A stretch of DNA of 56,863 bases from Nitrospirota bacterium. GTDB lineage: Bacteria > Nitrospirota_A > Leptospirillia > Leptospirillales > Leptospirillaceae. Positions 22,933 through 51,867 of this stretch are shown here, one piece after another; position 1 is the stretch's first letter; the number at the start of each line of letters is the position of its first letter. The position numbers and the translations under genes were made by a program. The DNA is taken from positions 1-56,863 of the forward strand of contig DAHWGX010000021.1 of the NCBI GenBank assembly GCA_027335985.1, given 5' to 3'. A model generated the notes under the pieces. It saw nothing but the letters and a program-made list of their open reading frames with translations. It was not told the DNA's origin and searched no databases.

Positions 22933-23181
22933 TTACTTCACTTTTTTGACGATGACCTCCCAGTAGCCATCTTTTTTTTCCGTCTTCAGATACTCCTGGC
23001 CGACCTTCTGAATCCAGGCGGGAATATCCTTCGCCGATCCTTCGTCTGTGGAGAGAACCGAAAGAACCGTCCCGACAGGCTTGAGCTGGATGGTCTTGAT
23101 CAGCTCCATCAGAGGACCAGGACAAAAAAGGCCCCGTCCGTCGACGATCTCATCGATTTTAACCCCTGTGTCTTCTGCCAT
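22933..23181 (-). CDS. tusA: TusA-family sulfur carrier protein
   Basis: The 82-residue protein carries the TusA signature GRGLFCPGPLMELIKTI with the persulfide cysteine C20 in CPGP. TusA accepts sulfur from IscS, rhodanese or DsrE-type proteins and passes it on. It lies just downstream of a DsrE2-like gene, a pairing common in sulfur oxidisers. The C-terminus is slightly longer and more basic than in E. coli TusA. ATG after GAGAAAG. Confidence 0.9.
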   Translation of the reverse strand: MAEDTGVKIDEIVDGRGLFCPGPLMELIKTIQLKPVGTVLSVLSTDEGSAKDIPAWIQKVGQEYLKTEKKDGYWEVIVKKVK

Positions 23182-23209
23182 TCTTTCTCTCCTGTCCGTT
23201 CATCGGTTG

Positions 23210-23602
23210 TCATACAAAAAGAACCTGGCCACCCTCGGCTTTCCCCAGAAATCCCGCCACACCCAGCACCTCGTCGAAGACCGGAACATACTGGTCGAGT
23301 TTTTCCCCGACAAGTTCAAGGGCCATGGCACATGCATAGACCTTGAGAGATCCCATCATCTTTCCCTGCTGGAGAAGGTCGTAAAACATGGGGCCACCCT
23401 TCTGGAGAAGCTGTTGTCCGATCTCCCCGTCCACCTTGAAATTCTTCTTTTCCACCGCCGATTTTCTGAAGGCGGTGACAGCGTTCATCGTCACGAAAAC
23501 GTTCACTTCCATCTGGCTTACCGCGGCAACGGAAGCCATAAGGCCTACGGCATGCATTTTTTCGAGAGAGTCGGAGGCCAACACGAAGGAAATTCGTTCC
23601 AT
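23210..23602 (-). CDS. DsrE2-like sulfur carrier
   Basis: The 130-residue DsrE/DsrF/DrsH-fold protein has an N-terminal strand (ISFVLASDSLEKMH), a helix-rich middle and the conserved YAC-x-MAxELxG motif with its only cysteine at C91, typical of the DsrE2 group. DsrE2 proteins bind several sulfur atoms and exchange them with TusA. It is first in a two-gene operon with tusA on the minus strand. No hdr or rhodanese gene is adjacent. Confidence 0.8.
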   Translation of the reverse strand: MERISFVLASDSLEKMHAVGLMASVAAVSQMEVNVFVTMNAVTAFRKSAVEKKNFKVDGEIGQQLLQKGGPMFYDLLQQGKMMGSLKVYACAMALELVGEKLDQYVPVFDEVLGVAGFLGKAEGGQVLFV

Positions 23603-26140: not shown

Positions 26141-27535
26141 TCATCGATGGATGGCCTCCCCGAAGAGGTCGAGAAAGGCTTCGTGTATGGCTTCGCTTAC
26201 TGTGGGATGAGGGAAGACCCCCTCCATGAGACGGCGAGCCCCCTCCTTGTCCCCCATCGCCGAGGCCACCGGTCCGATCATTTCCGAAGCATGGGGACCA
26301 ATCCCGTGGAATCCCAGGATGCGGCCGGTCGCCATGTCCGAAAATACCTTGAAGAATCCTCTCCGGTTCCCTTCGATCAGGGAGCGGCCGTTGGCCATAA
26401 GGGGAAAGCGTCCCTCGGAGACGGAGTGCCCACGCCCTTCGGCCTCTTCCCTGGTCAGACCGACGGAGACCGCTTCGGGATGCGTGTAGACCACCCGGGG
26501 CACCCGGGCAGGATCAAGGGGGTGGGGACTTCGTCCCGTCATCGCCTCAACGGCAATGATCGCTTCCTGGCTTGCCTTGTGGGCAAGAAGAAGCCCCCCG
26601 ACCAGGTCACCCGCCGCATAGATTCCCGGCACAGCCGTTTCTCCCGTTGGCCCGACGGGAAGGAAGCCCCCTTTCCCCGGCAAAAGACCGACGTTTTCAA
26701 GCCCGAGCCCCTCCAGGACCGGCTCTCGGCCGATGGCGACCAGAGCGGCCTCCGTCTGAGCCTCCTCTTGCCGACCTTTTCCATCCCTGAATACAAGAGA
26801 GAGATGAGAGGATTCCGGAACGATCGACAGGGAGGTCGTTCCGGTCCGCACATCGATCCCCATCCCCGAAAACTCCCGGGCCAGTACATCCCCCACCTCC
26901 GGATCCTCGAGCGGGAGGAGCCGGGATTCGCGCTCCAGAAGATGGACATGACTTCCGAAAGCCGAGAGGATGTCCGCAAATTCGCAGCCGATCGCCCCAC
27001 CTCCAACGATTGCGATCCGCCCGTCGAATCCCCCGAGACGAAGAAGATCGGTGCTGCTGAGGATCCGTCGTCCATCGAAGGGCACTCCCGGCAGGGGACG
27101 GGGTCGTGAGCCGGTCGCAAGCAGGACAAAGCGCGTCCTTAGGTCGCTGGGAACTTCATCCGCGACCCGGACGAGCCCTGGGGCCACGAGCCAGCCCTTT
27201 GCCCGGACATGAGTGATGCCATGCTTTTTGAACAGGAACTCGATACCGCGGGTGAGCCTGTCGATGATGGCTGACCGATAGAGCGCCAGTTTCTCAGGAT
27301 TCCGGGACGGAGGAGGGACGGAAATCCCGAATCGGTCGGCCTCGGCCAGGGAGCGAAGGAATCCCGCGACTTCAAGGAGGGCCTTGGTCGGGATGCAGCC
27401 GTCATGCAGGCAGGTCCCCCCCACGGGAGCGGGATCGAGGACCGTCACCTTCATCCCGAGTTGAGCCGCCCGAATGGCTCCGACATAGCCGGCGGAACCG
27501 GCTCCCAGTACCACGAGATCAGCATCAGAATTCAT
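26141..27535 (-). CDS. lpdA: Dihydrolipoamide dehydrogenase (E3)
   Basis: This FAD-dependent flavoprotein re-oxidises dihydrolipoamide to lipoamide with NAD+. The FAD-binding GAGSAGYVGA is followed by the redox disulfide GGTCLHDGCIPTK, the NAD site IVGGGAIGCEFA, the second FAD site GIYAAGDLVGG, and the C-terminal base motif HPTVSEAIHEA. The CLHDGC spacing (four residues) is that of E3 rather than mercuric reductase. I chose the ATG at 27535; GTG at 27544 is also possible because GGGAG lies close to it. No E1 or E2 genes are nearby. Confidence 0.88.
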   Translation of the reverse strand: MNSDADLVVLGAGSAGYVGAIRAAQLGMKVTVLDPAPVGGTCLHDGCIPTKALLEVAGFLRSLAEADRFGISVPPPSRNPEKLALYRSAIIDRLTRGIEFLFKKHGITHVRAKGWLVAPGLVRVADEVPSDLRTRFVLLATGSRPRPLPGVPFDGRRILSSTDLLRLGGFDGRIAIVGGGAIGCEFADILSAFGSHVHLLERESRLLPLEDPEVGDVLAREFSGMGIDVRTGTTSLSIVPESSHLSLVFRDGKGRQEEAQTEAALVAIGREPVLEGLGLENVGLLPGKGGFLPVGPTGETAVPGIYAAGDLVGGLLLAHKASQEAIIAVEAMTGRSPHPLDPARVPRVVYTHPEAVSVGLTREEAEGRGHSVSEGRFPLMANGRSLIEGNRRGFFKVFSDMATGRILGFHGIGPHASEMIGPVASAMGDKEGARRLMEGVFPHPTVSEAIHEAFLDLFGEAIHR

Positions 27536-27748
27536 CGACCGCACAGATCTCCCAGTTTAGCGTATCGGTCGGAGCCCTTCGGCGGAAAGGTCATCGCCTT
27601 CGCCGGGGACATTTTCCAGCCCCAAAAAAGTCCGGTGGTTCCGTTTTCAAAGCTTAACAGATTCCCGCTCCATCTGACCAACATCCAGCATTACACCCTC
27701 GGCAAACAACCGGCCATGAAGATATTTTCAACCAATGACTACCTCTTC

Positions 27749-37651: not shown

Positions 37652-38848
37652 TTAGCGCACTCGTTCGGCCGACACCGGCACCTGCTCCTCTTTTTTCCTG
37701 TAATGACCGATCAGAACCGCAGCGACTTCCGGCCGCGTCATTTCGGGAGGAGGAGGCGATCCCTCCCGGAGCATCTGGCGAACCCGGGTTCCGGACAGAA
37801 GAACGTGTGATTTTTCATCGTGTCCGCAGGTCTTGTGGGAGACCATCCCTTCACACGTCCGGCAATAATAGGCGGTGTCGAAGAAGATGGGAATGATCCC
37901 CAGTTCGTCGAAGGAGAACTGCCTCAGGAGGGCATGGGCCTCGAAGGGACCATAGTAGCTTCCGACTCCGGCGTGATCCCGCCCGACGATGAAATGGGTG
38001 CATCCGTAGTTCTTTCGGACCAGGGCGTGAAACAGGGCCTCCCTCGGGCCGGCATACCGCATGGCACCGGGAAAAACTCCGAGCACGACCCTGGTCTTCG
38101 GATAGTAGCGTTCGAGCAGGACCTGGTAGCAGTCCATTCGCACCTTTGCAGGGACATCGTCCTCTTTGGTTTCTCCGACCAGGGGATGGAGGAAGAGGCC
38201 ATCGACAATCTCGAGCGAGCATTTCTGAATGTATTCATGAGCGCGATGGATGGGATTCCGGGTCTGGAATCCAACGACGGTCTGCCACCCCAGCTCCTCG
38301 AAAAGACCCCGGGAGGCGGTGGGGGTGAGATGAAATTCCGAAAAGGGCCCTTCCGCCCAATCGTCGAAGACGCTGACTTTTCCGCCCACGGCATAGGGGG
38401 TACCAAGCCGTTCGAGCGCCGCCACACCCGGGTGCGCCGGATCGGTGGTCTTGTAGACCTCCCGGGCCTCCCAGGAAAGGTCGCGGCGAAAAAGATCGGA
38501 GACCGTCAGGATTCCCAGAAGCCGGTCGTCGCCGTCCACGAGGCGCACCACCTCACCGATCCGGAGGGATCGGAATTCTTTTTCGGGAACGGGAAGAACG
38601 ATCGGAAGGGGAAAGACAAGACCGTCGGGGAGACGCATGCGCTCCACCACGGAATGATAGGTTTTTTCATCCATGAATCCGTCGAGGGGGCTTACCGCAC
38701 CGACCGCGATCAACCCCAGGTCGGATATTTCCCGGGCAGTGAGGCGTATGGACGGCCGGCTGGCGTAGGCCCGGACCATTTCCGGACGGGCGGATCGCGA
38801 GACGGTCGAGGTGACGAGCCGTCCTCCGTGAGGAACTGAAAGAAACAT
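37652..38848 (-). CDS. sat: Sulfate adenylyltransferase (ATP sulfurylase)
   Basis: 398-residue homo-oligomeric ATP sulfurylase that interconverts sulfate plus ATP and APS plus pyrophosphate. Active-site motifs QTRNPIHRAHE (195-205) and GRDHAGVGS (about 292-300) are intact, and a Cys-rich zinc loop CRTCEGMVSHKTCGH lies near the C-terminus. No APS-kinase domain is attached. It is the Sat/MET3 type, unlike the CysDN type. It is last in an aprA-aprB-sat operon, 32 bases after aprB. The ATG follows AAGGAG. Confidence 0.95.
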   Translation of the reverse strand: MFLSVPHGGRLVTSTVSRSARPEMVRAYASRPSIRLTAREISDLGLIAVGAVSPLDGFMDEKTYHSVVERMRLPDGLVFPLPIVLPVPEKEFRSLRIGEVVRLVDGDDRLLGILTVSDLFRRDLSWEAREVYKTTDPAHPGVAALERLGTPYAVGGKVSVFDDWAEGPFSEFHLTPTASRGLFEELGWQTVVGFQTRNPIHRAHEYIQKCSLEIVDGLFLHPLVGETKEDDVPAKVRMDCYQVLLERYYPKTRVVLGVFPGAMRYAGPREALFHALVRKNYGCTHFIVGRDHAGVGSYYGPFEAHALLRQFSFDELGIIPIFFDTAYYCRTCEGMVSHKTCGHDEKSHVLLSGTRVRQMLREGSPPPPEMTRPEVAAVLIGHYRKKEEQVPVSAERVR

Positions 38849-38880
38849 CGCTTCTCCTTATTATTGGATTGGGGGTGAAC

Positions 38881-39228
38881 TCAGGGCTCTGTCTCGAGAA
38901 GCTCTTCAGGAACCCGGGTGGCAAGCTCGAAGGTCTGGTCGGCTTCTCCCGCGACCGAGAGCGTCCACCGGATCGACTCCCGCCTGAGCTTCGGCACGAG
39001 CCTCGCCTCGCGTCCGGCCAGCTCGTACGGAAGGACGATATCGATGGCCCCCACCGGACACATCTTGACGCAGGCATAGCAGTCCCAACAGTCGGCCTGC
39101 TCCCGCATCACCGCGAGAGATCCTGCCTGATCCATACGGATCAGGTTTCCCGGACAGGCCACCACGCACCGGGCCTCCGGCAATTTCTTGCATCCATGAC
39201 ACAGACTGTCGCTGACGGCGATACCCAT
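38881..39228 (-). CDS. aprB: Adenylylsulfate reductase beta subunit AprB (short form)
   Basis: 115-residue iron-sulfur subunit with two [4Fe-4S] ferredoxin motifs: C10, C13, C21, C25 and C47, C50, C53, C57 (CWDCYACVKMCPVGA). The sequence closely follows AprB until about residue 90, then stops; dissimilatory AprB proteins extend by a 40-residue tail that wraps round the alpha subunit. That tail is missing here. AprB passes electrons to the FAD of AprA. Located 38 bases after aprA. Confidence 0.9.
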   Translation of the reverse strand: MGIAVSDSLCHGCKKLPEARCVVACPGNLIRMDQAGSLAVMREQADCWDCYACVKMCPVGAIDIVLPYELAGREARLVPKLRRESIRWTLSVAGEADQTFELATRVPEELLETEP

Positions 39229-39266
39229 TTCACTCCCTTTCCTTGACGAACGGTCCCAAGAACGGC

Positions 39267-41015
39267 TCAGACACCCTGTAGGCTCCTCTCCTCATCCGGC
39301 ACACCGGGTTCCCTCCACGCGATCTCCTCACCCTCGAGCGTTCGGTGGATGATCCGGACTTCTCCCGACGGCAGCGCCACGGAGTTGATGAAGTGCTCAT
39401 AACGGAGATCGCTCTCGGGATAATCCTGGCGGCTCTGAAATCCGGGCCACCGGGTCTCCTTCCGGGCCAGAAGATGGGCCACGAGGACCTGGGCCACATC
39501 CACCCTGTCGGCGACTTCGTGGGCCAGCATCAGCGCATGCTCATCCTCCGCCCTGATCCGGGGGAGGTCATCGACCAGCTCGGACAGCTTTTGACGGGCC
39601 ATGACAAGGGCGGCTTCGTTCATGGCGTAAGACGTCCGGATTCCTCCAGCGTACTCGTCCATGACCTTCTGAAGTCTCGCCTCGGCCTCGTCGGGACGGA
39701 TACGGTTCGAATCCCCGGGCGTCCCTCCTGTCCAGCGGAAGGTCCGCTCCCTTTCCCTGGCAACCTCCTCCATGTCGGGGGAGAGGATGGCCTTCGACTC
39801 CTCCCGGATTTCCCGGGCCGCGGCGCGGGCCGCGATCGCCCCCTCGGCAAAGCACCCGCTCACGAATTTATAGGGGGCCCCTCCCGCCACATCTCCTGCC
39901 GCAAAGAGGTTATCGAGCGTCGTCCTCCGGTCCACATCGACCCAGTAGCCGGCCTGGCAATGACCTCCGACCAGATAGGGTTCCGTTCCGCAGATCTCGA
40001 CCGGCTGCGCCGTGAGGTCGATGCGGTTGGCCGCCCAGTAGAGAACCGTGTTGGGATACATGTCCAGGTAGGCCTCGTACAACCGCTTGAGGTCTCCCTT
40101 GGTCAGATGACGGGTATCCATGAAGCAGGGTCCGTTTCCGGCGGCGATCTCGCGGAGCGGGCCCTCGAGGCGTAGCGGCGTCGGTGCGCCCTCCCCTCCG
40201 GATTCAGCCCAACGGATCTTCATGAACTCCTCCCCCTTCGAATTGACCTGGGGAGCGCGGAAACCCAGCGCAAGCGTTCCAGTGGGAGCGATCGTATCCT
40301 TGGTCCTGAGCGCGATGAAGCGATGTTCGAAGCTCGTCATCTCGGCCCCCGCCCGGATCCCGATCGCATATCCCGCCCCGGTGTTGAAGGGAGAATACCA
40401 CATTTTGTGCCGGGCTTGTCCTTCGTTGTTGGGACGGTAGAGACCGGAGGCGCCACCGGTCGCCACCAGGGTTTTCCGGGAGGAGATCACATAGAAGGCT
40501 CCGTCGGCAAGCCCGAATCCGTAGGCTCCGTGGACGGCTTTATCTTTCACGATGAGATCGGTCACGACGACGCGATTCAGGACATCGGCGCCGGATTTTC
40601 TGACCTCACGGGCCAGGATCGGCTTGAGGGATTCTCCGTGGATCTTGATGTTCCACCGACCCCGGGGAGAATATTTTCCGTCGGAATCCTTCACGATGGG
40701 CAGCCCCATCGCCTCGACCGTTTCGACTACCTCACGAAAGAGCTCCGCCTGGGAGCGGACCAGATCTTCCCTGAGAATGCCCATCGCGTCCATCCGAACG
40801 TATTCCACGAAGGAGTCGACCGTTTCTCCGGGGTTGATGTAGGCGTTGATCGCATTCATGCCACCGGCAAGACATCCGGAGCGATCGATATGGGCCTTGT
40901 CCACGACAAGAACCGACTGGTCGGGGTTTTCCCGCCTGGCGATGATGGCGGCATAGCATCCGGCCGTTCCGCCCCCGATAATCAACAGATCCGTCTCGAT
41001 CTTCCTGGTCTCCAT
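39267..41015 (-). CDS. aprA: Adenylylsulfate reductase alpha subunit AprA
   Basis: 582-residue FAD flavoprotein of the fumarate reductase/AprA superfamily that reduces APS to sulfite and AMP, or runs in reverse in sulfite oxidation. GGGTAGCYAA (14-23) is the FAD site, and SGCLAGGMNAINAY, FMDTRHL, and GGHCQAGYWVDVDRRTTLDNLFAAGDVAGGAPYK are typical AprA elements (the last shown only as the conserved region at about 354-383). It is shorter than dissimilatory AprA (about 620-660). First gene of aprA-aprB-sat; no qmo, aprM or dsrAB in view. Physiological direction, assimilatory or sulfite-oxidising, cannot be settled here. Confidence 0.85.
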   Translation of the reverse strand: METRKIETDLLIIGGGTAGCYAAIIARRENPDQSVLVVDKAHIDRSGCLAGGMNAINAYINPGETVDSFVEYVRMDAMGILREDLVRSQAELFREVVETVEAMGLPIVKDSDGKYSPRGRWNIKIHGESLKPILAREVRKSGADVLNRVVVTDLIVKDKAVHGAYGFGLADGAFYVISSRKTLVATGGASGLYRPNNEGQARHKMWYSPFNTGAGYAIGIRAGAEMTSFEHRFIALRTKDTIAPTGTLALGFRAPQVNSKGEEFMKIRWAESGGEGAPTPLRLEGPLREIAAGNGPCFMDTRHLTKGDLKRLYEAYLDMYPNTVLYWAANRIDLTAQPVEICGTEPYLVGGHCQAGYWVDVDRRTTLDNLFAAGDVAGGAPYKFVSGCFAEGAIAARAAAREIREESKAILSPDMEEVARERERTFRWTGGTPGDSNRIRPDEAEARLQKVMDEYAGGIRTSYAMNEAALVMARQKLSELVDDLPRIRAEDEHALMLAHEVADRVDVAQVLVAHLLARKETRWPGFQSRQDYPESDLRYEHFINSVALPSGEVRIIHRTLEGEEIAWREPGVPDEERSLQGV

Positions 41016-44725: not shown

Positions 44726-45199
44726 ATGCTCAAACTGACGAAGAAAGTCGATTATGCCCTCCTGGCCCTAAACCTCATGGCCAAGGCCGAAGATGGAGGG
44801 ATATCGAATGTCCGGGATATCGCAGCTCTGTACAGCATCCCTCCCGAAATCCTGGCCAAGGTGATGCAGAAGTTGTCCAAGTCTGGCCTGATCCAGAGCC
44901 ACAACGCACCGAAGGGGGGGTATTCCCTGAAGCTTCCAGCAGAAGAGATCTCCGTCCTCAAGGTCCTGGTGGCAGTCGAAGGACCGGTCGGAATCGTCAG
45001 CTGCTCGGACGGGACTGACAAATCATGCCAGCAGAGAGGCCAGTGCGACATCCGGTCCCCGCTGGAAAAACTCCAAAACAATATTCTATGGTTTCTCGAA
45101 GCCCTCTCGATCCGGGAGCTGGGACAGGAGCCGGCCGTTCTGAAAGGAGTCACCGATGGATCAAGTCTATTTGGACAACCACTCCACCACAAGGGTTGA
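44726..45199 (+). CDS. iscR: Iron-sulfur cluster regulator IscR (Rrf2 family)
   Basis: 157-residue Rrf2 winged-helix protein that senses Fe-S status. The N-terminal recognition helix region MLKLTKKVDYALLAL is followed by the wing, and three cysteines C93, C101 and C107 (SCSDGTDKSC-x5-C) sit where IscR ligates [2Fe-2S]. It is first in the isc operon and has an IscR-like operator overlapping its promoter, indicating autorepression. Its last 44 bases overlap the iscS start. Confidence 0.92.
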   Translation: MLKLTKKVDYALLALNLMAKAEDGGISNVRDIAALYSIPPEILAKVMQKLSKSGLIQSHNAPKGGYSLKLPAEEISVLKVLVAVEGPVGIVSCSDGTDKSCQQRGQCDIRSPLEKLQNNILWFLEALSIRELGQEPAVLKGVTDGSSLFGQPLHHKG

Positions 45200-46364
45200 T
45201 CCGCGCGTCCTGGAAGCAATGCTTCCCGCCTTTACCGATGCATACGGGAACCCCAGCTCCCGGAATCATGCCTTCGGATGGCGGGCCGAAGAGTTGTGCG
45301 AAAAAGGGCGCGAAGAGGTGGCCGCCCTCATCGGGGCCGATCCCAAGGAAATCATCTTTACCTCGGGGATGACAGAATCCGACAACCTCGCCATCAAGGG
45401 CGTGGCCGGCATGTACCGTGAGAAGGGAAACCACATCATCACCGTCGAAACGGAAATCCGCTCCGTCCTCGACCCTGTCCGCGCTCTTGAAGCCCAGGGC
45501 TTTGTGGTGACCGTCCTCCCCGTCGACCAGAACGGAAGGGTCGATCCGGAATCGGTCCGTTCGGCGATACGCCCGGATACGATCCTGGTGTCGATCATGA
45601 CAGTCAACCACGAGGTGGGAACAGTCCAGCCGATCGCGGAAATCGGAGCCATCACCCGCGAAAAAGGGGTTCTTTTCCACACCAATGCCGCCTACGCTGC
45701 CGGGGTGATGGCCATCGACGTCAACGCCATGAATATCGACCTGCTCACCTTCAACGCCCATCTGATTCACGGACCGAAGGGCGTGGGGGCTCTCTATGTC
45801 CGCAGAAAACCGAGAGTGAGGCTTTCTCCTCAAATCGAGGGAGGAGGGCATGAGCGGGGTTTCAGATCGGGCACGCTCAATACCCCGGGGATTGTCGGAT
45901 TCGGGGCAGCCTGCCGGATTCTCCGGGAGAACCTGTCCGCGGAAATATCCCACAGGAAAGCTTTGCGGGACCGTCTCGAGAACGGGATCCTGGAGGCGAT
46001 CGAATATGTCGAAGTCAACGGAAGCAGGGAACACCGGAGCCCCGCCGTGAGCAATCTTTCCTTCGCTTTCGTGGAGGGGGAGGCCCTGCTCATGGGACTT
46101 CGCGACATCGCCCTCTCCTCAGGCTCGGCCTGCACCTCGGCGACTCTCGAGCCCTCGTACGTGCTGAAATCCCTGGGAGTCGGAACGGACCTGGCTCATT
46201 CCTCCATCCGATTCTCGGTGGGCCGGTTCAACACAGTGGAGGAAATCGAGGCGGTCATACAGAGCGTCCGCAAGGCTGTGGAGAAACTCCGCGAGATGTC
46301 GCCCCTCTATGAAATGGCCAAGGAGGGGATTGATCTGAAGAGCGTTCAGTGGAGTCCGCACTGA
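45156..46364 (+). CDS. iscS: IscS-family protein lacking the PLP-binding pocket
   Basis: 402 residues, colinear with E. coli IscS over its whole length, including the IscU-binding tail (LREMSPLYEMAKEGIDL) and the mobile cysteine loop SSGSACTSA with C326 (E. coli C328). The PLP pocket is destroyed: H104 is I101, N155 is H152, D180 is N177, Q183 is Y180, S203 is N200 and the Schiff-base lysine K206 is L203 (CTG at 45762-45764). T73, H202 and R352 remain. The family removes sulfur from cysteine through PLP; without it this protein should not do so. It could hold IscU and HscB partners and relay persulfide sulfur from another donor. ATG has AAAGGAG and overlaps iscR by 44 bases. A related precedent is the Archaeoglobus fulgidus IscS, where aspartate replaces the lysine. 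Confidence 0.9.
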   Translation: MDQVYLDNHSTTRVDPRVLEAMLPAFTDAYGNPSSRNHAFGWRAEELCEKGREEVAALIGADPKEIIFTSGMTESDNLAIKGVAGMYREKGNHIITVETEIRSVLDPVRALEAQGFVVTVLPVDQNGRVDPESVRSAIRPDTILVSIMTVNHEVGTVQPIAEIGAITREKGVLFHTNAAYAAGVMAIDVNAMNIDLLTFNAHLIHGPKGVGALYVRRKPRVRLSPQIEGGGHERGFRSGTLNTPGIVGFGAACRILRENLSAEISHRKALRDRLENGILEAIEYVEVNGSREHRSPAVSNLSFAFVEGEALLMGLRDIALSSGSACTSATLEPSYVLKSLGVGTDLAHSSIRFSVGRFNTVEEIEAVIQSVRKAVEKLREMSPLYEMAKEGIDLKSVQWSPH

Positions 46365-46444
46365 TCGCCGGCTTTCCGGGCAGTGTCACCCCAAGAGGGT
46401 GGCTGGACAGGAACTTCGCACACACAGGATGAGGGAGCGCTACA

Positions 46445-46834
46445 ATGGCATACAGCGATAAGGTGATCGATCATTACAACAACCCGAGGAACATGGGATC
46501 TTTCGAAAAGACGGAAGAAAATGTCGGAACGGGAATCGTCGGGGCCCCCGAATGCGGGGACGTCATGAAGCTTCAGCTCAAGATCAACGATGACGGGGTA
46601 ATCGAAGAAGCCCGGTTCAAGACCTTCGGTTGCGGATCGGCGATCGCCTCGAGCTCCCTGGCAACGGAATGGGTCAAGGGAAAGACGGTCGAAGACGCTC
46701 TCAAAATCAAGAACACCGAAATCGCGAAGGAGCTCAATCTGCCTCCCGTCAAGCTGCACTGTTCGGTCCTGGCGGAGGACGCCATCAAGGGGGCGATTTC
46801 GGATTACCAGAAGAAGAAGGAACAACACGCCTGA
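46445..46834 (+). CDS. iscU: Iron-sulfur cluster scaffold IscU
   Basis: 129-residue scaffold on which clusters are assembled. The ligands C37 and D39 (PECGD), C63 (GCGSAIASS), H105 and C106 (KLHC) are all present, as is the HscA-binding loop LPPVK (99-103). One change from E. coli is Glu for Ala before C37. It receives sulfur from IscS, so the loss of PLP in the adjacent IscS matters directly. 80 bases after iscS. Confidence 0.95.
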   Translation: MAYSDKVIDHYNNPRNMGSFEKTEENVGTGIVGAPECGDVMKLQLKINDDGVIEEARFKTFGCGSAIASSSLATEWVKGKTVEDALKIKNTEIAKELNLPPVKLHCSVLAEDAIKGAISDYQKKKEQHA

Positions 46835-46847
46835 GAAGGGGGGATCC

Positions 46848-47177
46848 ATGATTCAGCTGACCGAAGCGGCCGCAAGCGAAGTACTGCGTCTCAAGAAAAA
46901 CCAGAACAAGGAATCCCACTTTCTTCGCCTGGGAATCGAAGGGGGGGGCTGTTCCGGCCTGTCCTACCTCATCAAGCTCGAGGAGGCTCCCCAGGAATTC
47001 GACGAGGTGATCGATGGGCCACGGGAGATCCGGATCGTACTCGACCCCAAAAGCAAGGTCTACCTCGATGGCTCGACCCTGGACTATGTCGGGGGAGGCC
47101 TGATGGGGGGAGGATTCAAGTTCGACAACCCGAACGCAAGCCATAGTTGCGGGTGCGGCTCTTCCTTCTCGGCCTGA
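46848..47177 (+). CDS. iscA: A-type iron-sulfur carrier IscA
   Basis: 109-residue A-type carrier with the three conserved cysteines C35, C101 and C103 (GGGCSG and SCGCGSS). It transfers [4Fe-4S] clusters to target apoproteins. The central region and length agree with IscA/ErpA; genomic context favours IscA. ATG after GGGGGG-rich binding site, 13 bases after iscU. Confidence 0.93.
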   Translation: MIQLTEAAASEVLRLKKNQNKESHFLRLGIEGGGCSGLSYLIKLEEAPQEFDEVIDGPREIRIVLDPKSKVYLDGSTLDYVGGGLMGGGFKFDNPNASHSCGCGSSFSA

Positions 47178-47219
47178 AGCCGATCAAAAGTCCTCAATGC
47201 AATGAAAGATGCGTCGAAG

Positions 47220-47246
47220 GAGGGAGAGACACATTCTCCCTCTTTT
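47220..47246 (+). terminator. Intrinsic terminator or attenuator between iscA and hscB
   Basis: GAGGGAGA (47220-47227) pairs with TCTCCCTC (47235-47242) across a seven-base loop, followed by TTTT. It lies between iscA and hscB and could reduce expression of the chaperone half relative to iscRSUA. Confidence 0.6.
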
Positions 47247-47263
47247 GACTTCAGGAGAGTCCG

Positions 47264-47965
47264 ATGTCTGACACTGGAACTGCGGAAAAAAAAATATCCC
47301 AGGCTAAGCTTCTCCACCCGAATAATCGAGAACATAGCCATTCCGTCTGCTGGAATTGTGAAAAAAACGTCGGCGACGAGGATGTGTGCCCCTCGTGCGT
47401 CCGTGTCCAGCCATTCGGGCCTGAAAGGGATTATTACAACATTTTGGGCCTTCCCGTGCGTCTGGCGCTCGATCCGAGACTCCTTGTGGCCGCCTACCAC
47501 GAGAAAAGCCGAACCTTTCATCCGGACCACCATGTGGAAGATTCGGAAAAGGAACAGTCGATCACTCTGGGAAACTCTTCCTTGGTCAACCTGGCCTTCC
47601 GGACTCTTCGGGACCCCTTTCTCCGGGCGCACTATTTTATAGGGCACATCAAGCGCGAGCCGGCTCGCCCGAACCGGAAGGCTGTGCTCTCCTCAAGCGC
47701 CCTCATGGAAATCATGGATCTGAAGGAGGAGCGCGACACTCTCCTTTCGAGCCAGGGAGCGGCTGCCGCCGAACAGCGGCTCCGGGCTGTGATCGACCCC
47801 ATCGAACGGGATATTTTCCACTCATTTGAGGAAATCGATGCGTTGATCGAAGACGCCGACAAAGAGAGTGACACGCTTTCAAAGGCCCTCGCGGACTTGT
47901 CGGAGCGACTCGAAAAACGCGCCTATCTCCAGAATCTTCTCAAGGAAGTCAAGGAGGCCTCGTGA
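47264..47965 (+). CDS. hscB: Co-chaperone HscB with N-terminal zinc ribbon
   Basis: 233-residue J-domain protein that brings IscU to HscA. The J domain has the HPD motif at 86-88 and the YYNILGLP start (about 57-64), and the C-terminal helical domain is intact. Before it lies a 50-residue extension with C29-x2-C32-x9-C42-x2-C45, a likely zinc ribbon as in human HSC20, unusual in bacterial HscB. The ATG follows AGGAG. The stop overlaps the hscA start (GTGA). Confidence 0.9.
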
Positions 47966-49794
47966 ACAGAATCGTTGTGGGAATCGATCTTGGCACCACC
48001 CATTCACTCGCGGCCTACCGCCGGGAAGATGGACAGGTCGAAGTCATCCCGGACCGGGAGGGACGCCTTCTCCTGCCCTCGGTCGTCGCCCTTTCAAAGG
48101 ACGGGGTTCGTGTGGGATGGAGCGCGAGGGAGCGGATCAACGATCCGGAAACAACCGTCATTTATGCGGCGAAGCGCCTGATGGGACGATCCTTTGAGGA
48201 GACTGAGTCCGAGCGAAGGAGCCTGACCTACCCCGTCGTCGACCACAAGGGTTCTCCCGCAGTTCCCGACCCCTATCGCAACCGGCTTCTGACCCCCCCG
48301 GAAATCGGGGCCCTGGTTCTCCGCGACCTGAAAAGCCGCGCAGAGGAGGCTCTTTCCCGGGAGGTCTCCGAAGCCGTCATCACTGTTCCGGCATATTTCA
48401 ACGACGCGCAGCGACAGGCCACCAAGGATGCCGGTGCTCTTGCCGGACTCAAGGTTCTGAGAATCATCAACGAACCCACCGCGGCGGCTCTGGCCTATGG
48501 CCTTGGCTCCGGGAAGGACGGCCTGTTCGCCATCTTTGACCTCGGAGGAGGCACCTTCGACTTTTCCCTTCTCGACATCCGAAAGGGAATCTTCGAAGTG
48601 CGGGCCACAAGCGGGGATACGCACCTGGGAGGCGAGGACTTCGACCGGGCCATCGTTTCGGCCTGGCTCGAGGAAAACCCCAAACTGGCCTCGCTCGCGG
48701 AACGTTCCGAAGTAAGGGATCTATTGCGGAAGGAGGCGGAACGCGTCAAGATCGCCCTCTCCCATAAATCGGAGGTGGAGGTTGCCATTCCGGCGCTCGG
48801 ATTCCGGACGTCACTGACGCGCTCCCGGATGAACGCCCTGGTGGAACCCTTCGTGGACCGGACCCTTTCCTGCGTGCGGGCAGCGCTCGCGGACGGGGGG
48901 ACGGCACCCGCCGACGTGGATGGCGTCATCCTCGTGGGAGGCTCCACGCGCTTTCTCCGTTTCAAGGAAGCCGTGGCCGCCTTCTTCGGCAAGCCTCTTT
49001 TCGACTCAGTGGATCCCGATCTGGTCGTCGCCGAGGGAGCGGCCGTCCAGGCCGACATCCTCTCGGGCCGACGAAAGGATCTTCTCCTCCTCGATGTGAC
49101 GCCGCTTTCTCTGGGAATCGAAACCATCGGAGGAGTCACCAGCACGCTCATCCCCCGCAATACCACCATTCCCGCCCAGGCCAAGGAGCTTTTCACGACC
49201 TATGTCGACGGCCAGACGAATGTGGACATCCATGTCCTGCAGGGGGAGAGGGAAATGGCAAAGGACAACAGGAGCCTGGCGCGCTTCACCCTCTCGGGAG
49301 TCCCCCCTCTTCCCGCCGGAACCCCGCGCATCGAGGTCACCTTCCAGATCGACGCCAACGGGATTCTCGAAGTGACCGCCCGGGAGCAGACGACCGGAAC
49401 GATGTCCAACGTGGTGATCCAGCCGTCCTATGGTCTGGACAAGGACGATGTGCGGTCCCTTCTCAAGGATGCTTTTTCCCACGCCCAGGAAGATTTCGCG
49501 ACGCGCCTTCTCGTCGATGCGAAGACCGAGGCCCAGACGGTCCTCAACGCCACGGACCGGGCCCTGGAGAGGGTCGGGTCCGACATTCTCCCGGACGCCG
49601 ACCGAGAGGCCATCCGCAAGCAGATGAAGCTCCTCAGAACGGCCATGGACGGATCCGACGGTCGGAAGGTTCGCGACGAGACGCAGGCTCTCGACCGTCT
49701 GACCCAGCCACTGGCCGAACGACTGATGAACCAGTCACTTTCCGATGCTCTCTCGGGAATGGCCCTTTCCAAGGAAGGAGGGTCCCATGCCTAA
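47962..49794 (+). CDS. hscA: Hsp70-type chaperone HscA
   Basis: 610-residue specialised Hsp70 that helps release clusters from IscU using ATP. The nucleotide domain begins [14 protein letters not shown] and carries the phosphate motifs [14 protein letters not shown] and VGGSTRFL; the substrate domain starts near residue 370 with [15 protein letters not shown]. The GTG start overlaps hscB. Its partner binding motif LPPVK occurs in IscU of this operon. Confidence 0.94.
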
Positions 49795-50122
49795 GGTCTC
49801 GTTTCGCCCCGACGAGCGTCTTCCCGAAACCTTCCCCCCCGTCACGGTGGATGTGGAAGAGAACGCCACGATCCTCGAAGCGGCAAAAAAAGCCCATGTC
49901 CCTCTGGAGCACAACTGTGGGGGGGTTTGCGCATGCTCGACTTGCCATGTCATTGTCGACGACGGCTTCGACCGCCTCTCCCTGATGGAAGAGGACGAAG
50001 AGGACCAGCTTGACGAAGCCGAAGGACTGACCCTCAAATCGCGCCTGGGTTGCCAGGCCCATATCAAGGGGGACATCTCCGTGCGAATCCCCCCCTGCAG
50101 CAAGGGATCCCACGAACACTAA
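49787..50122 (+). CDS. fdx: [2Fe-2S] ferredoxin (Isc type)
   Basis: 111-residue adrenodoxin-type ferredoxin that supplies electrons for cluster assembly. The ligands are C44, C50, C53 and C89, with an extra C48 as in E. coli Fdx ([11 protein letters not shown]). ATG at 49787 overlaps the hscA stop by eight bases. An upstream extension of the frame overlaps hscA further and was rejected. Confidence 0.93.
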
Positions 50123-50136
50123 ACGAGGAACGGCCT

Positions 50137-50340
50137 ATGAACTGGAATGAGACCTACGAAATCGGATATCAGCTTTTCGAGCACCATCCGGAGGTCGACC
50201 CTCTTACGGTCCGCTTCACCGACATGCACCAGTGGATTCTCGCCCTCCCGGGATTTTCGGGTGACCCAAAGTCCTCGAACGAAAAAGTCCTCGAAGCCAT
50301 CCAGATGGCTTGGCTGGAAGAATGGAAGGACAACCAGTAA
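50137..50340 (+). CDS. iscX: IscX (YfhJ)
   Basis: 67-residue acidic helical protein with the family pattern MNWNETYEIGYQLFE and DPLTVRFTDMHQWILALPGF. IscX binds IscS and regulates or supports cluster assembly. It binds the IscS surface used by CyaY, so its retention suggests the unusual IscS keeps partner contacts. Overlaps the next gene by 19 bases. Confidence 0.92.
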   Translation: MNWNETYEIGYQLFEHHPEVDPLTVRFTDMHQWILALPGFSGDPKSSNEKVLEAIQMAWLEEWKDNQ

Positions 50341-50744
50341 CCCCTCCCCGCACTCTCCGGATACGCACCCGCCTTTCCTCGGCCTCCCTGTCTGCGGAAG
50401 CCTTGGTCGCCCGCCTTTTGTGGGCGAGAAAAGGATCGGGGCGCCCGGTGACGTGGGAGGATTTTCGAAGAGCCCGGGAAAGCCGGCATGGGGGCCTCGA
50501 TATCGATCCTGCCACATTCCGGGTTCTTCTTGAGACGGTCCCTCCGGATCCTGGATTTTGCTGGAGGGATCACCTGTTCCGTCCCGGAGTCCGGGACGCC
50601 GAGGGACGGGAATATGAAGTGCTTGCAACCTTCCCGGACCGCATCGACCTATTGAGGGACGACGGGGTGACAGGATATTCGAGCATGAGGGAATTCAAGG
50701 AGTTTTTTACTCCGCTCATTCAAAGGAACGATTCGTCAGGATAG
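50322..50744 (+). CDS. Hypothetical protein in the isc cluster
   Basis: 140 residues, with a basic proline/arginine-rich N-terminus and a central hydrophilic region; no signal peptide or transmembrane helix. I do not recognise a family. It lies between iscX, which it overlaps, and mrp, so it is probably co-expressed with the Fe-S genes. The ATG at 50322 sits after GGAAG; an in-frame TTG at 50310 would give four more residues. Confidence 0.6.
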   Translation: MEGQPVTPPRTLRIRTRLSSASLSAEALVARLLWARKGSGRPVTWEDFRRARESRHGGLDIDPATFRVLLETVPPDPGFCWRDHLFRPGVRDAEGREYEVLATFPDRIDLLRDDGVTGYSSMREFKEFFTPLIQRNDSSG

Positions 50745-50775
50745 ACACACACTTTCAACCCATCAGGGAGCCTCT

Positions 50776-51867
50776 ATGAGTCAGGAAAAAGATCAGGAAA
50801 TCGGACAGTCAGTCATGAAGGCCCTGGGACGCGTGATCGAACCGGACTTCAAGAAGGATCTCGTAACCCTGAAGATGATCGAGGACCTCACCGTCAAGGA
50901 CGGGAACGTGACCTTTACCGTCATCCTCACAACCCCGGCCTGTCCCCTCAAGGAGGAGATCAAGAAGGCCTGCATGGAAGCCCTGGCCCCGGTCGAAGGG
51001 ATCCGCTCCGTGGACATTCACATGACCGCCCGTACGACCGGAGGCGGAGCCCGTGAGGGAAAGGCTGCCATCGAGGGGGTCAAGAATGTCATTGCCGTCT
51101 CCAGCGGAAAGGGGGGCGTCGGCAAGTCGACCACGGCCGTCAATCTGGCTATCGCATTGACCGAGCTCGGAGCCAAGGTCGGCATCCTCGATTCGGACGT
51201 CTATGGACCGAACATCCCCATGATGCTCGGGGTCAACGCTCTGCCGAAACAGGTGAACAACCGCTGGTTTCCCCCGAAGGCCTACGAGATCCCGGTCATG
51301 TCGATGGCCTTTATGGCACCCCCCGGAGCGCCCCTCATCTGGCGCGGCCCCATGTTGCACGGGATCATCACCCAGTTCGTCCGGGATGTAGAATGGGGGG
51401 AGCTCGACTACCTCGTCGTCGACATGCCTCCCGGAACGGGCGACGCCCAGCTCTCACTGGCCCAGCTTGTGCCGGTGACGGGGGCGATCATCGTCACGAC
51501 CCCCCAGGAGGTCGCCCTGTCGGATTCCCGCAGGGGTCTCGCGATGTTCCAGAAGGTGAATGTTCCCATCCTCGGGATCGTCGAAAACATGAGCTCCTTT
51601 CATTGTCCGCACTGCCACCATGAAACCCCCATTTTTTCCCAGGGAGGCGGAGAGAAGGCGGCCTTCGAGCTCAAGGTTCCCTTCCTCGGCAGAATCCCCA
51701 TCGATTTGTCGATACGCGAGGCGGGAGACCAGGGACGCCCGATCGGGATCGCCCAACCGGAGAGCCCGCTTTCGGAGGCCTATCTGAAAATCGCGGGCAA
51801 CATCGCTTCCCGCATCAGCGTCCTGAACTCCGAGTTCACCCCCATCACCCTCGGGACCCTGGCCTGA
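50776..51867 (+). CDS. mrp: Iron-sulfur carrier protein Mrp/ApbC (NBP35 type)
   Basis: 363 residues. An N-terminal MIP18/DUF59 domain (about 1-90, with TTPACPLKE) precedes the ParA-like ATPase with deviant Walker A GKGGVGKS (111-118), DSDVYGPNIP and VDMPPGTGD. The CPHC motif (about 278-281) binds the bridging cluster between monomers. It carries Fe-S clusters to target enzymes. It belongs functionally to the isc region. Followed by a strong terminator. Confidence 0.95.
   Translation: MSQEKDQEIGQSVMKALGRVIEPDFKKDLVTLKMIEDLTVKDGNVTFTVILTTPACPLKEEIKKACMEALAPVEGIRSVDIHMTARTTGGGAREGKAAIEGVKNVIAVSSGKGGVGKSTTAVNLAIALTELGAKVGILDSDVYGPNIPMMLGVNALPKQVNNRWFPPKAYEIPVMSMAFMAPPGAPLIWRGPMLHGIITQFVRDVEWGELDYLVVDMPPGTGDAQLSLAQLVPVTGAIIVTTPQEVALSDSRRGLAMFQKVNVPILGIVENMSSFHCPHCHHETPIFSQGGGEKAAFELKVPFLGRIPIDLSIREAGDQGRPIGIAQPESPLSEAYLKIAGNIASRISVLNSEFTPITLGTLA

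What the first reader, a model, noticed from the sequence alone, without database searches (positions are those of the whole stretch)
45156..46364. An IscS without a PLP site inside an otherwise complete isc operon
Seen directly: the protein aligns with E. coli IscS from end to end and keeps the sulfur loop cysteine C326 and the IscU-binding tail. Yet K206 is L203, H104 is I101, N155 is H152, D180 is N177, Q183 is Y180 and S203 is N200. Six changes in one pocket, with the rest of the fold kept, argue against sequencing error and against simple decay. Known: PLP attached to K206 is essential for cysteine desulfuration; the A. fulgidus IscS precedent has Asp at that site. Inference: this IscS is a scaffold or persulfide relay and gets sulfur from another source.
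Basis: partly seen in the sequence, partly recalled or inferred. Interest (0 to 1): 0.93.

Follow-up and report, generated by a model that had tools for sequence, protein, structure and literature searches.

The report
Desulfurase without its cofactor lysine
In this Leptospirillum-like bacterium the enzyme that should strip sulfur from cysteine for iron-sulfur clusters has leucine where the cofactor-holding lysine belongs, as do all 45 close relatives examined, yet it keeps its sulfur-carrying cysteine, so it probably passes on sulfur made elsewhere instead of making it.

Summary
The IscS in this complete isc operon has Leu203 for the PLP lysine, and Ile101, Asn177, Tyr180 for His104, Asp180, Gln183, while keeping the persulfide cysteine Cys326. 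It is clade-wide: 46 of 46 listed Leptospirillum-group sequences carry Leu203, against Lys in 75 of 75 other listed hits; dN/dS is about 0.06; the clade nests inside Lys-bearing IscS. In E. coli IscS, changing any one of those four residues is reported to cost its activity, so this protein almost certainly cannot desulfurate cysteine, although activity was ascribed to it in Leptospirillum sp. CF-1 (PMC9628965). No SUF genes were found in 21 relatives. A Lys-bearing desulfurase, mostly NifS-type, is present in 13; none was found in two good genomes (99% and 95% complete).

A second, separate Lys-less IscS group in the same phylum gives a mechanism clue. Of 63 isc loci with a neighbouring TusA sulfur-carrier gene, 58 encode Lys-less IscS with its cysteine kept; of 63 canonical Lys-bearing loci none has tusA in the flanks held. 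Most likely this IscS is a PLP-free docking and persulfide-relay protein for IscU; where its sulfur comes from (TusA-type carriers or sulfide) is inferred, not shown.

The parts
45156..46364 (+). iscS, 402 aa, Lys-less (desulfurase-dead by inference)
   Evidence: NCBIfam NF010611 599.7 bits (cut-off 548); TIGR02006 581.9 (below its cut-off 643.2)
45762..45764 (+). codon of Leu203, the site of the PLP lysine (E. coli Lys206)
   Evidence: L in 46 of 46 clade sequences, K in 75 of 75 other listed hits
45456..45458 (+). Ile101 (E. coli His104)
   Evidence: I 44, G 1, V 1 of 46; H in 75 of 75
45684..45695 (+). Asn177 to Tyr180 (E. coli Asp180, Gln183)
   Evidence: N177 and Y180 in 46 of 46; D and Q in 75 of 75
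46131..46133 (+). Cys326, persulfide cysteine (E. coli Cys328)
   Evidence: C in 46 of 46 and in 17 of 17 loci
44726..45199 (+). iscR (Rrf2 family)
   Evidence: Pfam PF02082
46445..46834 (+). iscU scaffold
   Evidence: PF01592
46848..47177 (+). iscA
   Evidence: PF01521
47264..47965 (+). hscB-like J protein
   Evidence: PF00226, 26.9 bits, just under its cut-off 27.8; position before hscA
47962..49794 (+). hscA
   Evidence: PF00012
49745..50122 (+). fdx, [2Fe-2S] ferredoxin
   Evidence: PF00111
50149..50340 (+). iscX
   Evidence: PF04384
50776..51867 (+). Mrp/ApbC-type Fe-S carrier ATPase
   Evidence: PF10609 and PF01883
37652..38848 (-). sat, ATP sulfurylase (possible sulfide supply)
   Evidence: PF01747; neighbourhood kept in 10 of 11 relatives with 10 kb held upstream
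38881..39228 (-). aprB-like ferredoxin subunit
   Evidence: Fer4 domains; AprB by position and recall
39267..41015 (-). aprA-like flavoprotein (APS reductase alpha by recall)
   Evidence: PF00890
22933..23181 (-). tusA sulfur carrier
   Evidence: PF01206, 67.5 bits
23210..23602 (-). DsrE-like sulfur carrier next to tusA
   Evidence: PF13686

Best explanation
The IscS of Leptospirillum-group bacteria has lost the PLP lysine and three further pocket residues but keeps its loop cysteine, so it is predicted to be a PLP-free docking and persulfide-relay protein for IscU that likely receives its sulfur from carriers such as TusA instead of from cysteine. Shown here: the substitutions, their fixation in the clade, purifying selection, the intact isc operon, the kept Cys326 loop, C-terminal tail and Arg patch, no SUF match in 21 relatives, presence of TusA-type carriers and (in the four good genomes) sulfite reductase. 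Inferred: loss of activity (from published single mutants of E. coli IscS), IscU docking (from sequence and fold), and persulfide transfer onto Cys326 from an outside donor (by analogy with the separate TusA-linked Lys-less IscS group). In members with NifS, NifS could load the carriers; in others sulfide or a carrier-bound persulfide would have to do so.
For: Leu203 fixed: 46 of 46 against K in 75 of 75; 17 of 17 loci against K in 63 of 63. Median pairwise dN/dS 0.064 for iscS (63 pairs), against 0.038 iscU, 0.086 hscA, 0.075 mrp. H104, D180, Q183, K206 and C328 are each reported indispensable in E. coli IscS, R354K is active (passages of PMC9978102); the first four are gone, the C328 and R354 equivalents stay. 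Cys loop, tail and Arg patch R217/R220/R222 (in E. coli R220, R223, R225 serve TusA, IscX and CyaY: passages of PMC11302665) are kept. Clade nested in Lys-bearing IscS, fork 100/99. SUFBD 0 of 21 (controls 14 of 14); TusA 20 of 21; NIR_SIR 14 of 21, 4 of 4 good genomes. Analogy: 70 TusA loci read (the 30 best and 40 that I chose down the list); 63 hold an IscS; 58 of 63 are Lys-less, 63 of 63 keep the Cys; tusA 6-128 bp upstream in 49 of 49 of the two closer sets; no TusA match in the flanks held of 63 of 63 Lys-bearing canonical loci.
Against: No biochemistry. Leptospirillum sp. CF-1 extracts show cysteine desulfurase activity that rises to 124-151% under stress (PMC9628965 section 20); iscS mRNA rises 7-40 fold, and was unchanged at 0.5 h when activity was 137% (passages), a mismatch that fits another enzyme but does not prove one. 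13 of 21 relatives carry a Lys-bearing desulfurase, so the pathway may still start from cysteine there. No tusA lies in the flanks held of 17 of 17 Leptospirillum-group isc loci; in the window it is 22 kb off, and TusA is common in genomes at large. The TusA-linked group is one or few lineages, 5 of its 63 loci (one family) keep Lys, and one Lys-less iscS (L212) has no tusA match beside it. Some residues recalled as phosphate or substrate contacts (T73, H202, T240, R352) are kept, so the pocket may still bind a ligand.
Confidence: 0.55

Rival explanations
1. A. fulgidus-like scaffold: the protein only docks IscU and lends Cys326 as a cluster ligand, while free sulfide from sulfate assimilation is the sulfur donor.
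For: A. fulgidus IscS lacks the lysine, is inactive, and its cysteine ligates the [2Fe-2S] cluster on IscU (as told in PMC7585200). H2S rescues E. coli delta-iscS but not delta-iscU, anaerobically (abstract and passages of PMC13015791). sat-aprB-aprA-like genes lie upstream of isc in the window and in 10 of 11 relatives with 10 kb held upstream; sulfite reductase match in 4 of 4 good genomes.
Against: Leptospirillum is aerobic (recalled), and with oxygen H2S only partly rescued the E. coli mutant. The kept TusA-binding Arg patch and the TusA carriers fit a relay as well. Gene nearness is weak evidence.
Confidence: 0.27
2. It is an accessory partner for another desulfurase: NifS or the third group I desulfurase of the same cell loads sulfur, directly or through carriers, onto IscS or IscU.
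For: NifS-type genes in 12 of 21 relatives (Lys read in 11; the twelfth is a fragment without the site) and a further group I type in 6 (Lys read in 4); together 13 of 21 with a Lys-bearing gene read. In the L. ferriphilum type strain NifS had the highest protein level within its nif clusters (passage of PMC5772234).
Against: 8 of 21 show neither, among them G018 (99% complete) and G013 (95%), although both have an MnmA match. In the two genomes whose surroundings I read, G016 and G002, the NifS gene sits in a nif-like neighbourhood (NifB-like by Pfam in G016), so it may be nif-specific.
Confidence: 0.1
3. It is still a cysteine desulfurase of unusual kind that holds PLP without the lysine.
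For: E. coli K206A keeps some PLP and is said to react at a very low rate (PMC9978102); CF-1 extracts have desulfurase activity.
Against: The authors speculate that His104 takes over in K206A; it is lost here too, as are D180 and Q183. No lysine is newly conserved in the clade.
Confidence: 0.05
4. Decaying gene or assembly error.
For: Loss of several active-site residues.
Against: Same residues in 46 of 46 sequences, dN/dS about 0.06, co-transcribed operon in CF-1 (passages of PMC9628965).
Confidence: 0.01

Closest known systems
Canonical bacterial IscS (E. coli 1p3w, 3lvm, 3lvl with IscU) and human NFS1
   Different: No PLP lysine, no His104, Asp180 or Gln183
Archaeoglobus fulgidus IscS (4eb5, 4hvk; Asp for Lys) and Methanosarcina acetivorans IscS1
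   Same: PLP lysine missing, loop cysteine kept, partner IscU; the A. fulgidus protein is reported inactive (passages of PMC7585200)
   Different: Archaeal iscSU; sequence nearer to other IscS types (310.7 bits with the query against 488-495 for E. coli and human); Asp there, Leu with several further pocket changes here
TusA-linked Lys-less IscS of other Nitrospirota (found here, loci L211-L303)
   Same: Lys replaced (mostly Gln), loop Cys kept, iscU next door
   Different: tusA beside iscS; hscBA-fdx not seen by eye in the loci listed; His104 and Asp180 equivalents kept in the proteins printed; separate branches of the tree

Membership tests
PLP-dependent cysteine desulfurase IscS (group I) | IscS sequence family | tested here: met
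   NF010611 599.7 bits over cut-off 548; but TIGR02006 581.9 under its cut-off 643.2
PLP-dependent cysteine desulfurase IscS (group I) | Lysine forming the PLP Schiff base | tested here: not met
   Leu203, 46 of 46 in the clade
PLP-dependent cysteine desulfurase IscS (group I) | His104, Asp180, Gln183 around the PLP ring | tested here: not met
   Ile101, Asn177, Tyr180
PLP-dependent cysteine desulfurase IscS (group I) | Mobile-loop cysteine | tested here: met
   Cys326 in 46 of 46
PLP-dependent cysteine desulfurase IscS (group I) | Desulfurase activity and bound PLP | not testable with these tools
   needs purified protein
ISC operon protein docking IscU | Gene order iscR-iscS-iscU-iscA-hscB-hscA-fdx-iscX | tested here: met
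   (HscB match 26.9 bits, cut-off 27.8)
ISC operon protein docking IscU | Physical IscU binding | not testable with these tools
   tail and loop sequence conserved; binding not measured
A. fulgidus-type Lys-less IscS | PLP lysine absent, cysteine kept | tested here: met
A. fulgidus-type Lys-less IscS | Closest solved relative is A. fulgidus IscS | tested here: not met
   query scores 488-495 bits with E. coli and human, 310.7 with 4eb5; A. fulgidus itself was not in my trees
TusA-linked Lys-less IscS group | tusA adjacent in the isc operon | tested here: not met
   no TusA match in the flanks held of 17 of 17 Leptospirillum-group loci (some flanks short); in the window tusA is 22 kb away
SUF system | SufB/SufD core proteins in the genome | tested here: not met
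   0 of 21 relatives, controls 14 of 14; the window's own genome is not held

The most novel reading that the evidence does not exclude
The housekeeping iron-sulfur pathway of a whole bacterial family runs without cysteine desulfuration: IscS has become a PLP-free persulfide acceptor, loaded from TusA-type carriers (the reverse of the E. coli direction IscS to TusA), and the same switch happened separately in other Nitrospirota, where tusA stands in the operon next to a Lys-less iscS.
Probability: 0.38. Interest if true: 0.92.

Novelty: new variant of a known kind. Interest (0 to 1): 0.8.

Why it matters
IscS is treated as the entry point of sulfur in ISC systems. Here a complete bacterial ISC operon, in a group known from biomining and acid mine drainage, has a conserved IscS that by sequence should not be able to do that step, and a published activity study ascribed extract activity to it. 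It separates the two jobs of IscS, chemistry and docking, in nature; it makes the question 'what feeds ISC when cysteine does not' directly testable; and together with the TusA-linked group it suggests that the sulfur relay can run from TusA to IscS. Annotation by name calls such proteins cysteine desulfurase (names).

Tried and rejected
Sequencing error and decay: rejected. A shifted catalytic lysine: of the 8 lysines conserved in the clade none is new, all are common outside it too. A second class V paralog (type D) as the hidden desulfurase: it lacks the lysine too, 18 of 18 rows from 17 genomes (A, S, V or R in its place). A heterodimer rescuing the lysine: not tested; thought unlikely because the lysine and the ring contacts come from one subunit (recalled). 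Proof that the CF-1 iscS is Lys-less through its published primers: in nine loci tried, the primers match only L012, L130 and L189 (the last two from G017) with 2 mismatches and L015 with 3, and the reverse qPCR primer none within 3, so the CF-1 gene itself was not read; P0017 and P0019, named Leptospirillum and L. ferriphilum, have Leu. A plasmid search gave only distant IscS genes (60-80% identity, 22 records). The AF2 model is weak (under 50) at 229-231, 233-239 and 323-331. The pattern scan sees only some codons and one motif, so its 7 of 374 genomes outside the family is an undercount; one search showed the larger group. The regex missed many proteins and was replaced by the alignment. 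Other phyla were not surveyed. Paper searches; in the parts listed, no title or abstract start describes a Lys-less Leptospirillum IscS or a tusA-linked Lys-less IscS; only open-licence PMC papers are searched, and three of these searches had more hits than were listed. Seen of the papers cited: passages of PMC9628965 (plus its sections 17, 20 and 25), PMC9978102, PMC7585200, PMC5772234, PMC11302665 and PMC13015791 (plus its abstract and outline).

Full report
What is there. The window carries iscR-iscS-iscU-iscA-hscB-hscA-fdx-iscX and then an Mrp/ApbC gene on the + strand, 44726-51867. The iscS product is 402 aa. NCBIfam calls it IscS by one model (NF010611, over its cut-off) and not by the stricter one (TIGR02006, 581.9 against 643.2 bits).

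It is a clade property. Of the 120 homologues listed (out of 7999 scored), 45 at 73-92% identity form the Leptospirillum group (those with names are Leptospirillum, Nitrospirota or Nitrospirae); with the query, 46 of 46 have L203, N177, Y180 and N200, and 44 of 46 I101 (G and V in the others). The other 75, at 61-66% (the few with names include Nitrospira, Nitrospinae and Acidobacteriaceae), have K, D, Q and H in 75 of 75. In genome contigs 17 of 17 Leptospirillum-group loci have Leu and the other 63 of the 80 loci kept have Lys. In the family's 21 held genomes 20 have the Leu motif; the 21st (G001, 66% complete) shows no IscS. Only 12 of 402 columns are at least 90% one residue outside the clade and at most 10% that residue inside; four of them are the PLP contacts 101, 177, 180, 203 (P 4e-4 against 207 conserved columns), and column 72 (Ala to Met or Val) neighbours the recalled phosphate contact Thr73. 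The larger, hydrophobic side chains suggest, as inference, that the empty cofactor site was refilled.

It is under purifying selection: median dN/dS 0.064 over 63 pairs with 0.1 < dS < 1.5, between iscU (0.038) and mrp (0.075) or hscA (0.086). In the trees the clade is one group (100/100) within Lys-bearing canonical IscS (fork 100/99), so the lysine was most simply lost once at its base.

What else could supply sulfur. In the 21 relatives: SUFBD 0 of 21 with 14 of 14 controls; TusA 20 of 21, about 2.5 kb from mnmA in G016, G018, G019, G020 and G021 by coordinates; rhodanese domain 18 of 21; MnmA match 20 of 21, 8 of them over the family cut-off; NIR_SIR 14 of 21 and 4 of 4 good genomes. Desulfurase-like class V proteins: (A) this IscS; (B) a NifS type with Lys read in 11 genomes and a fragment in a twelfth (G005); its surroundings, read in G016 and G002, look like a nif cluster; (C) another type in 6 genomes, Lys read in 4 (G005, G008, G010, and the C-terminal piece in G016); (D) a further paralog that also lacks the lysine, 18 of 18 rows. 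Genomes with a Lys-bearing B or C: 13 of 21. Without: G001, G007, G011, G012, G013, G017, G018, G019; most are incomplete, but G018 is 99% and G013 95% complete, and G007 has an unplaced fragment. In G018 the five class V matches are A, D and three of other kinds (by recall: an alanine-glyoxylate-type aminotransferase, a glycine dehydrogenase subunit and a Lys/Orn decarboxylase-like protein). The window's own genome is not held. So in some members no ordinary cysteine desulfurase was found, and in others only NifS-type or accessory ones. The window itself has tusA and a DsrE-like gene (22933-23602) and sat-aprB-aprA-like genes (37652-41015); the latter stand upstream of isc in 10 of the 11 relatives with 10 kb held there (not in L015; L003 shows part), against an aprA fragment in 1 of 63 others.

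Clash with print. [quoted passage not shown] CF-1, iscS mRNA induction of 31 fold after 1 h of ferric stress (no change at 0.5 h) and 7 to 40 fold in iron starvation, and extract desulfurase activity rising to 124-151%, assigned to IscS because no other desulfurase gene was found; the words lysine and PLP do not occur in its text. The L. ferriphilum type strain does have nifS (passage of PMC5772234). The present result makes that assignment doubtful; the CF-1 gene itself was not read.

A parallel case. Scanning 395 Nitrospirota genomes for certain non-Lys codons in the IscS motif gave 7 genomes outside the family. In 6 of these 7 loci a TusA gene sits near the Lys-less iscS (not in L212). Searching from the TusA side (310 of 395 genomes at E 1e-12) I read 70 loci: the 30 best, 20 with 54-68% TusA identity and 20 with 41-48%, the last two sets chosen by me down the list. 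IscS was present in 30, 19 and 14. The lysine site holds Q 27, E 2, I 1; then Q 17, E 1, L 1; then Q 7, M 1, T 1 and K 5 (all one family, f3). So 58 of 63 are Lys-less and 63 of 63 keep the cysteine. In the two closer sets tusA is 6-128 bp upstream (between matched ends) on the same strand in 49 of 49, with iscU matched in 48; in the third set tusA follows iscS in 14 of 14, with iscU in 13. In 63 of 63 canonical Lys-bearing loci no TusA match was found, though only 39 have 4 kb on both sides. The rows are related, so this is an association over a few lineages, not 58 events; the tree needs at least 3 changes of state, and some of its forks are weak. The best solved relative of this group with an organism name known to me is A. 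fulgidus IscS (384 bits), after a 9we/9wf series of unstated origin, one chain of which also shows Leu at the site.

Reading. The simplest account is a PLP-free IscS that docks IscU and takes persulfide on Cys326 from a carrier. The association of tusA with lysine loss elsewhere in the phylum makes TusA the first candidate; sulfide, which can feed E. coli delta-iscS provided IscU is present, is the main rival. Function was not measured.

Noticed in passing
L211, L213-L217, L234-L303: Operons tusA-iscS-iscU (or iscS-iscU then tusA) in other Nitrospirota with Gln, Glu, Ile, Leu, Met, Thr or Arg for the PLP lysine and the loop cysteine kept; 5 loci of one family keep Lys.
   Followed up: partly
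L095, L096, L098, L101 and 14 further loci of Leptospirillum-group genomes: A second desulfurase-like paralog (type D) with Ala, Ser, Val or Arg for the PLP lysine and a GTGSSCS-type cysteine loop kept; neighbours by Pfam: DUF3501 and a CCG-domain protein in L148, a CoA-binding protein in L144, an epimerase-like protein in L147. Best solved hit is A. fulgidus IscS.
   Followed up: partly
window 22933-23602: tusA and a DsrE-like gene side by side on the minus strand, downstream of a pyridine nucleotide-disulfide oxidoreductase gene (26141-27544; dihydrolipoamide dehydrogenase by recall).
   Followed up: partly
window 37652-41015: sat-aprB-aprA-like genes upstream of the isc operon, kept in 10 of 11 relatives with 10 kb held there.
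   Followed up: partly
window 44726-45199: IscR has three cysteines (CSDGTDKSCQQRGQC) but Arg where the recalled fourth cluster ligand His107 of E. coli IscR would be.
   Followed up: no
L146 (G016:C1:1271642-1272752): A third NifS-type gene in the one-contig genome G016 is split over two frames; it may be broken.
   Followed up: no
PDB 9wfy_A: A deposited cysteine desulfurase chain with Leu at the lysine site, in a series of near-identical chains that differ at active-site positions, perhaps designed variants.
   Followed up: no
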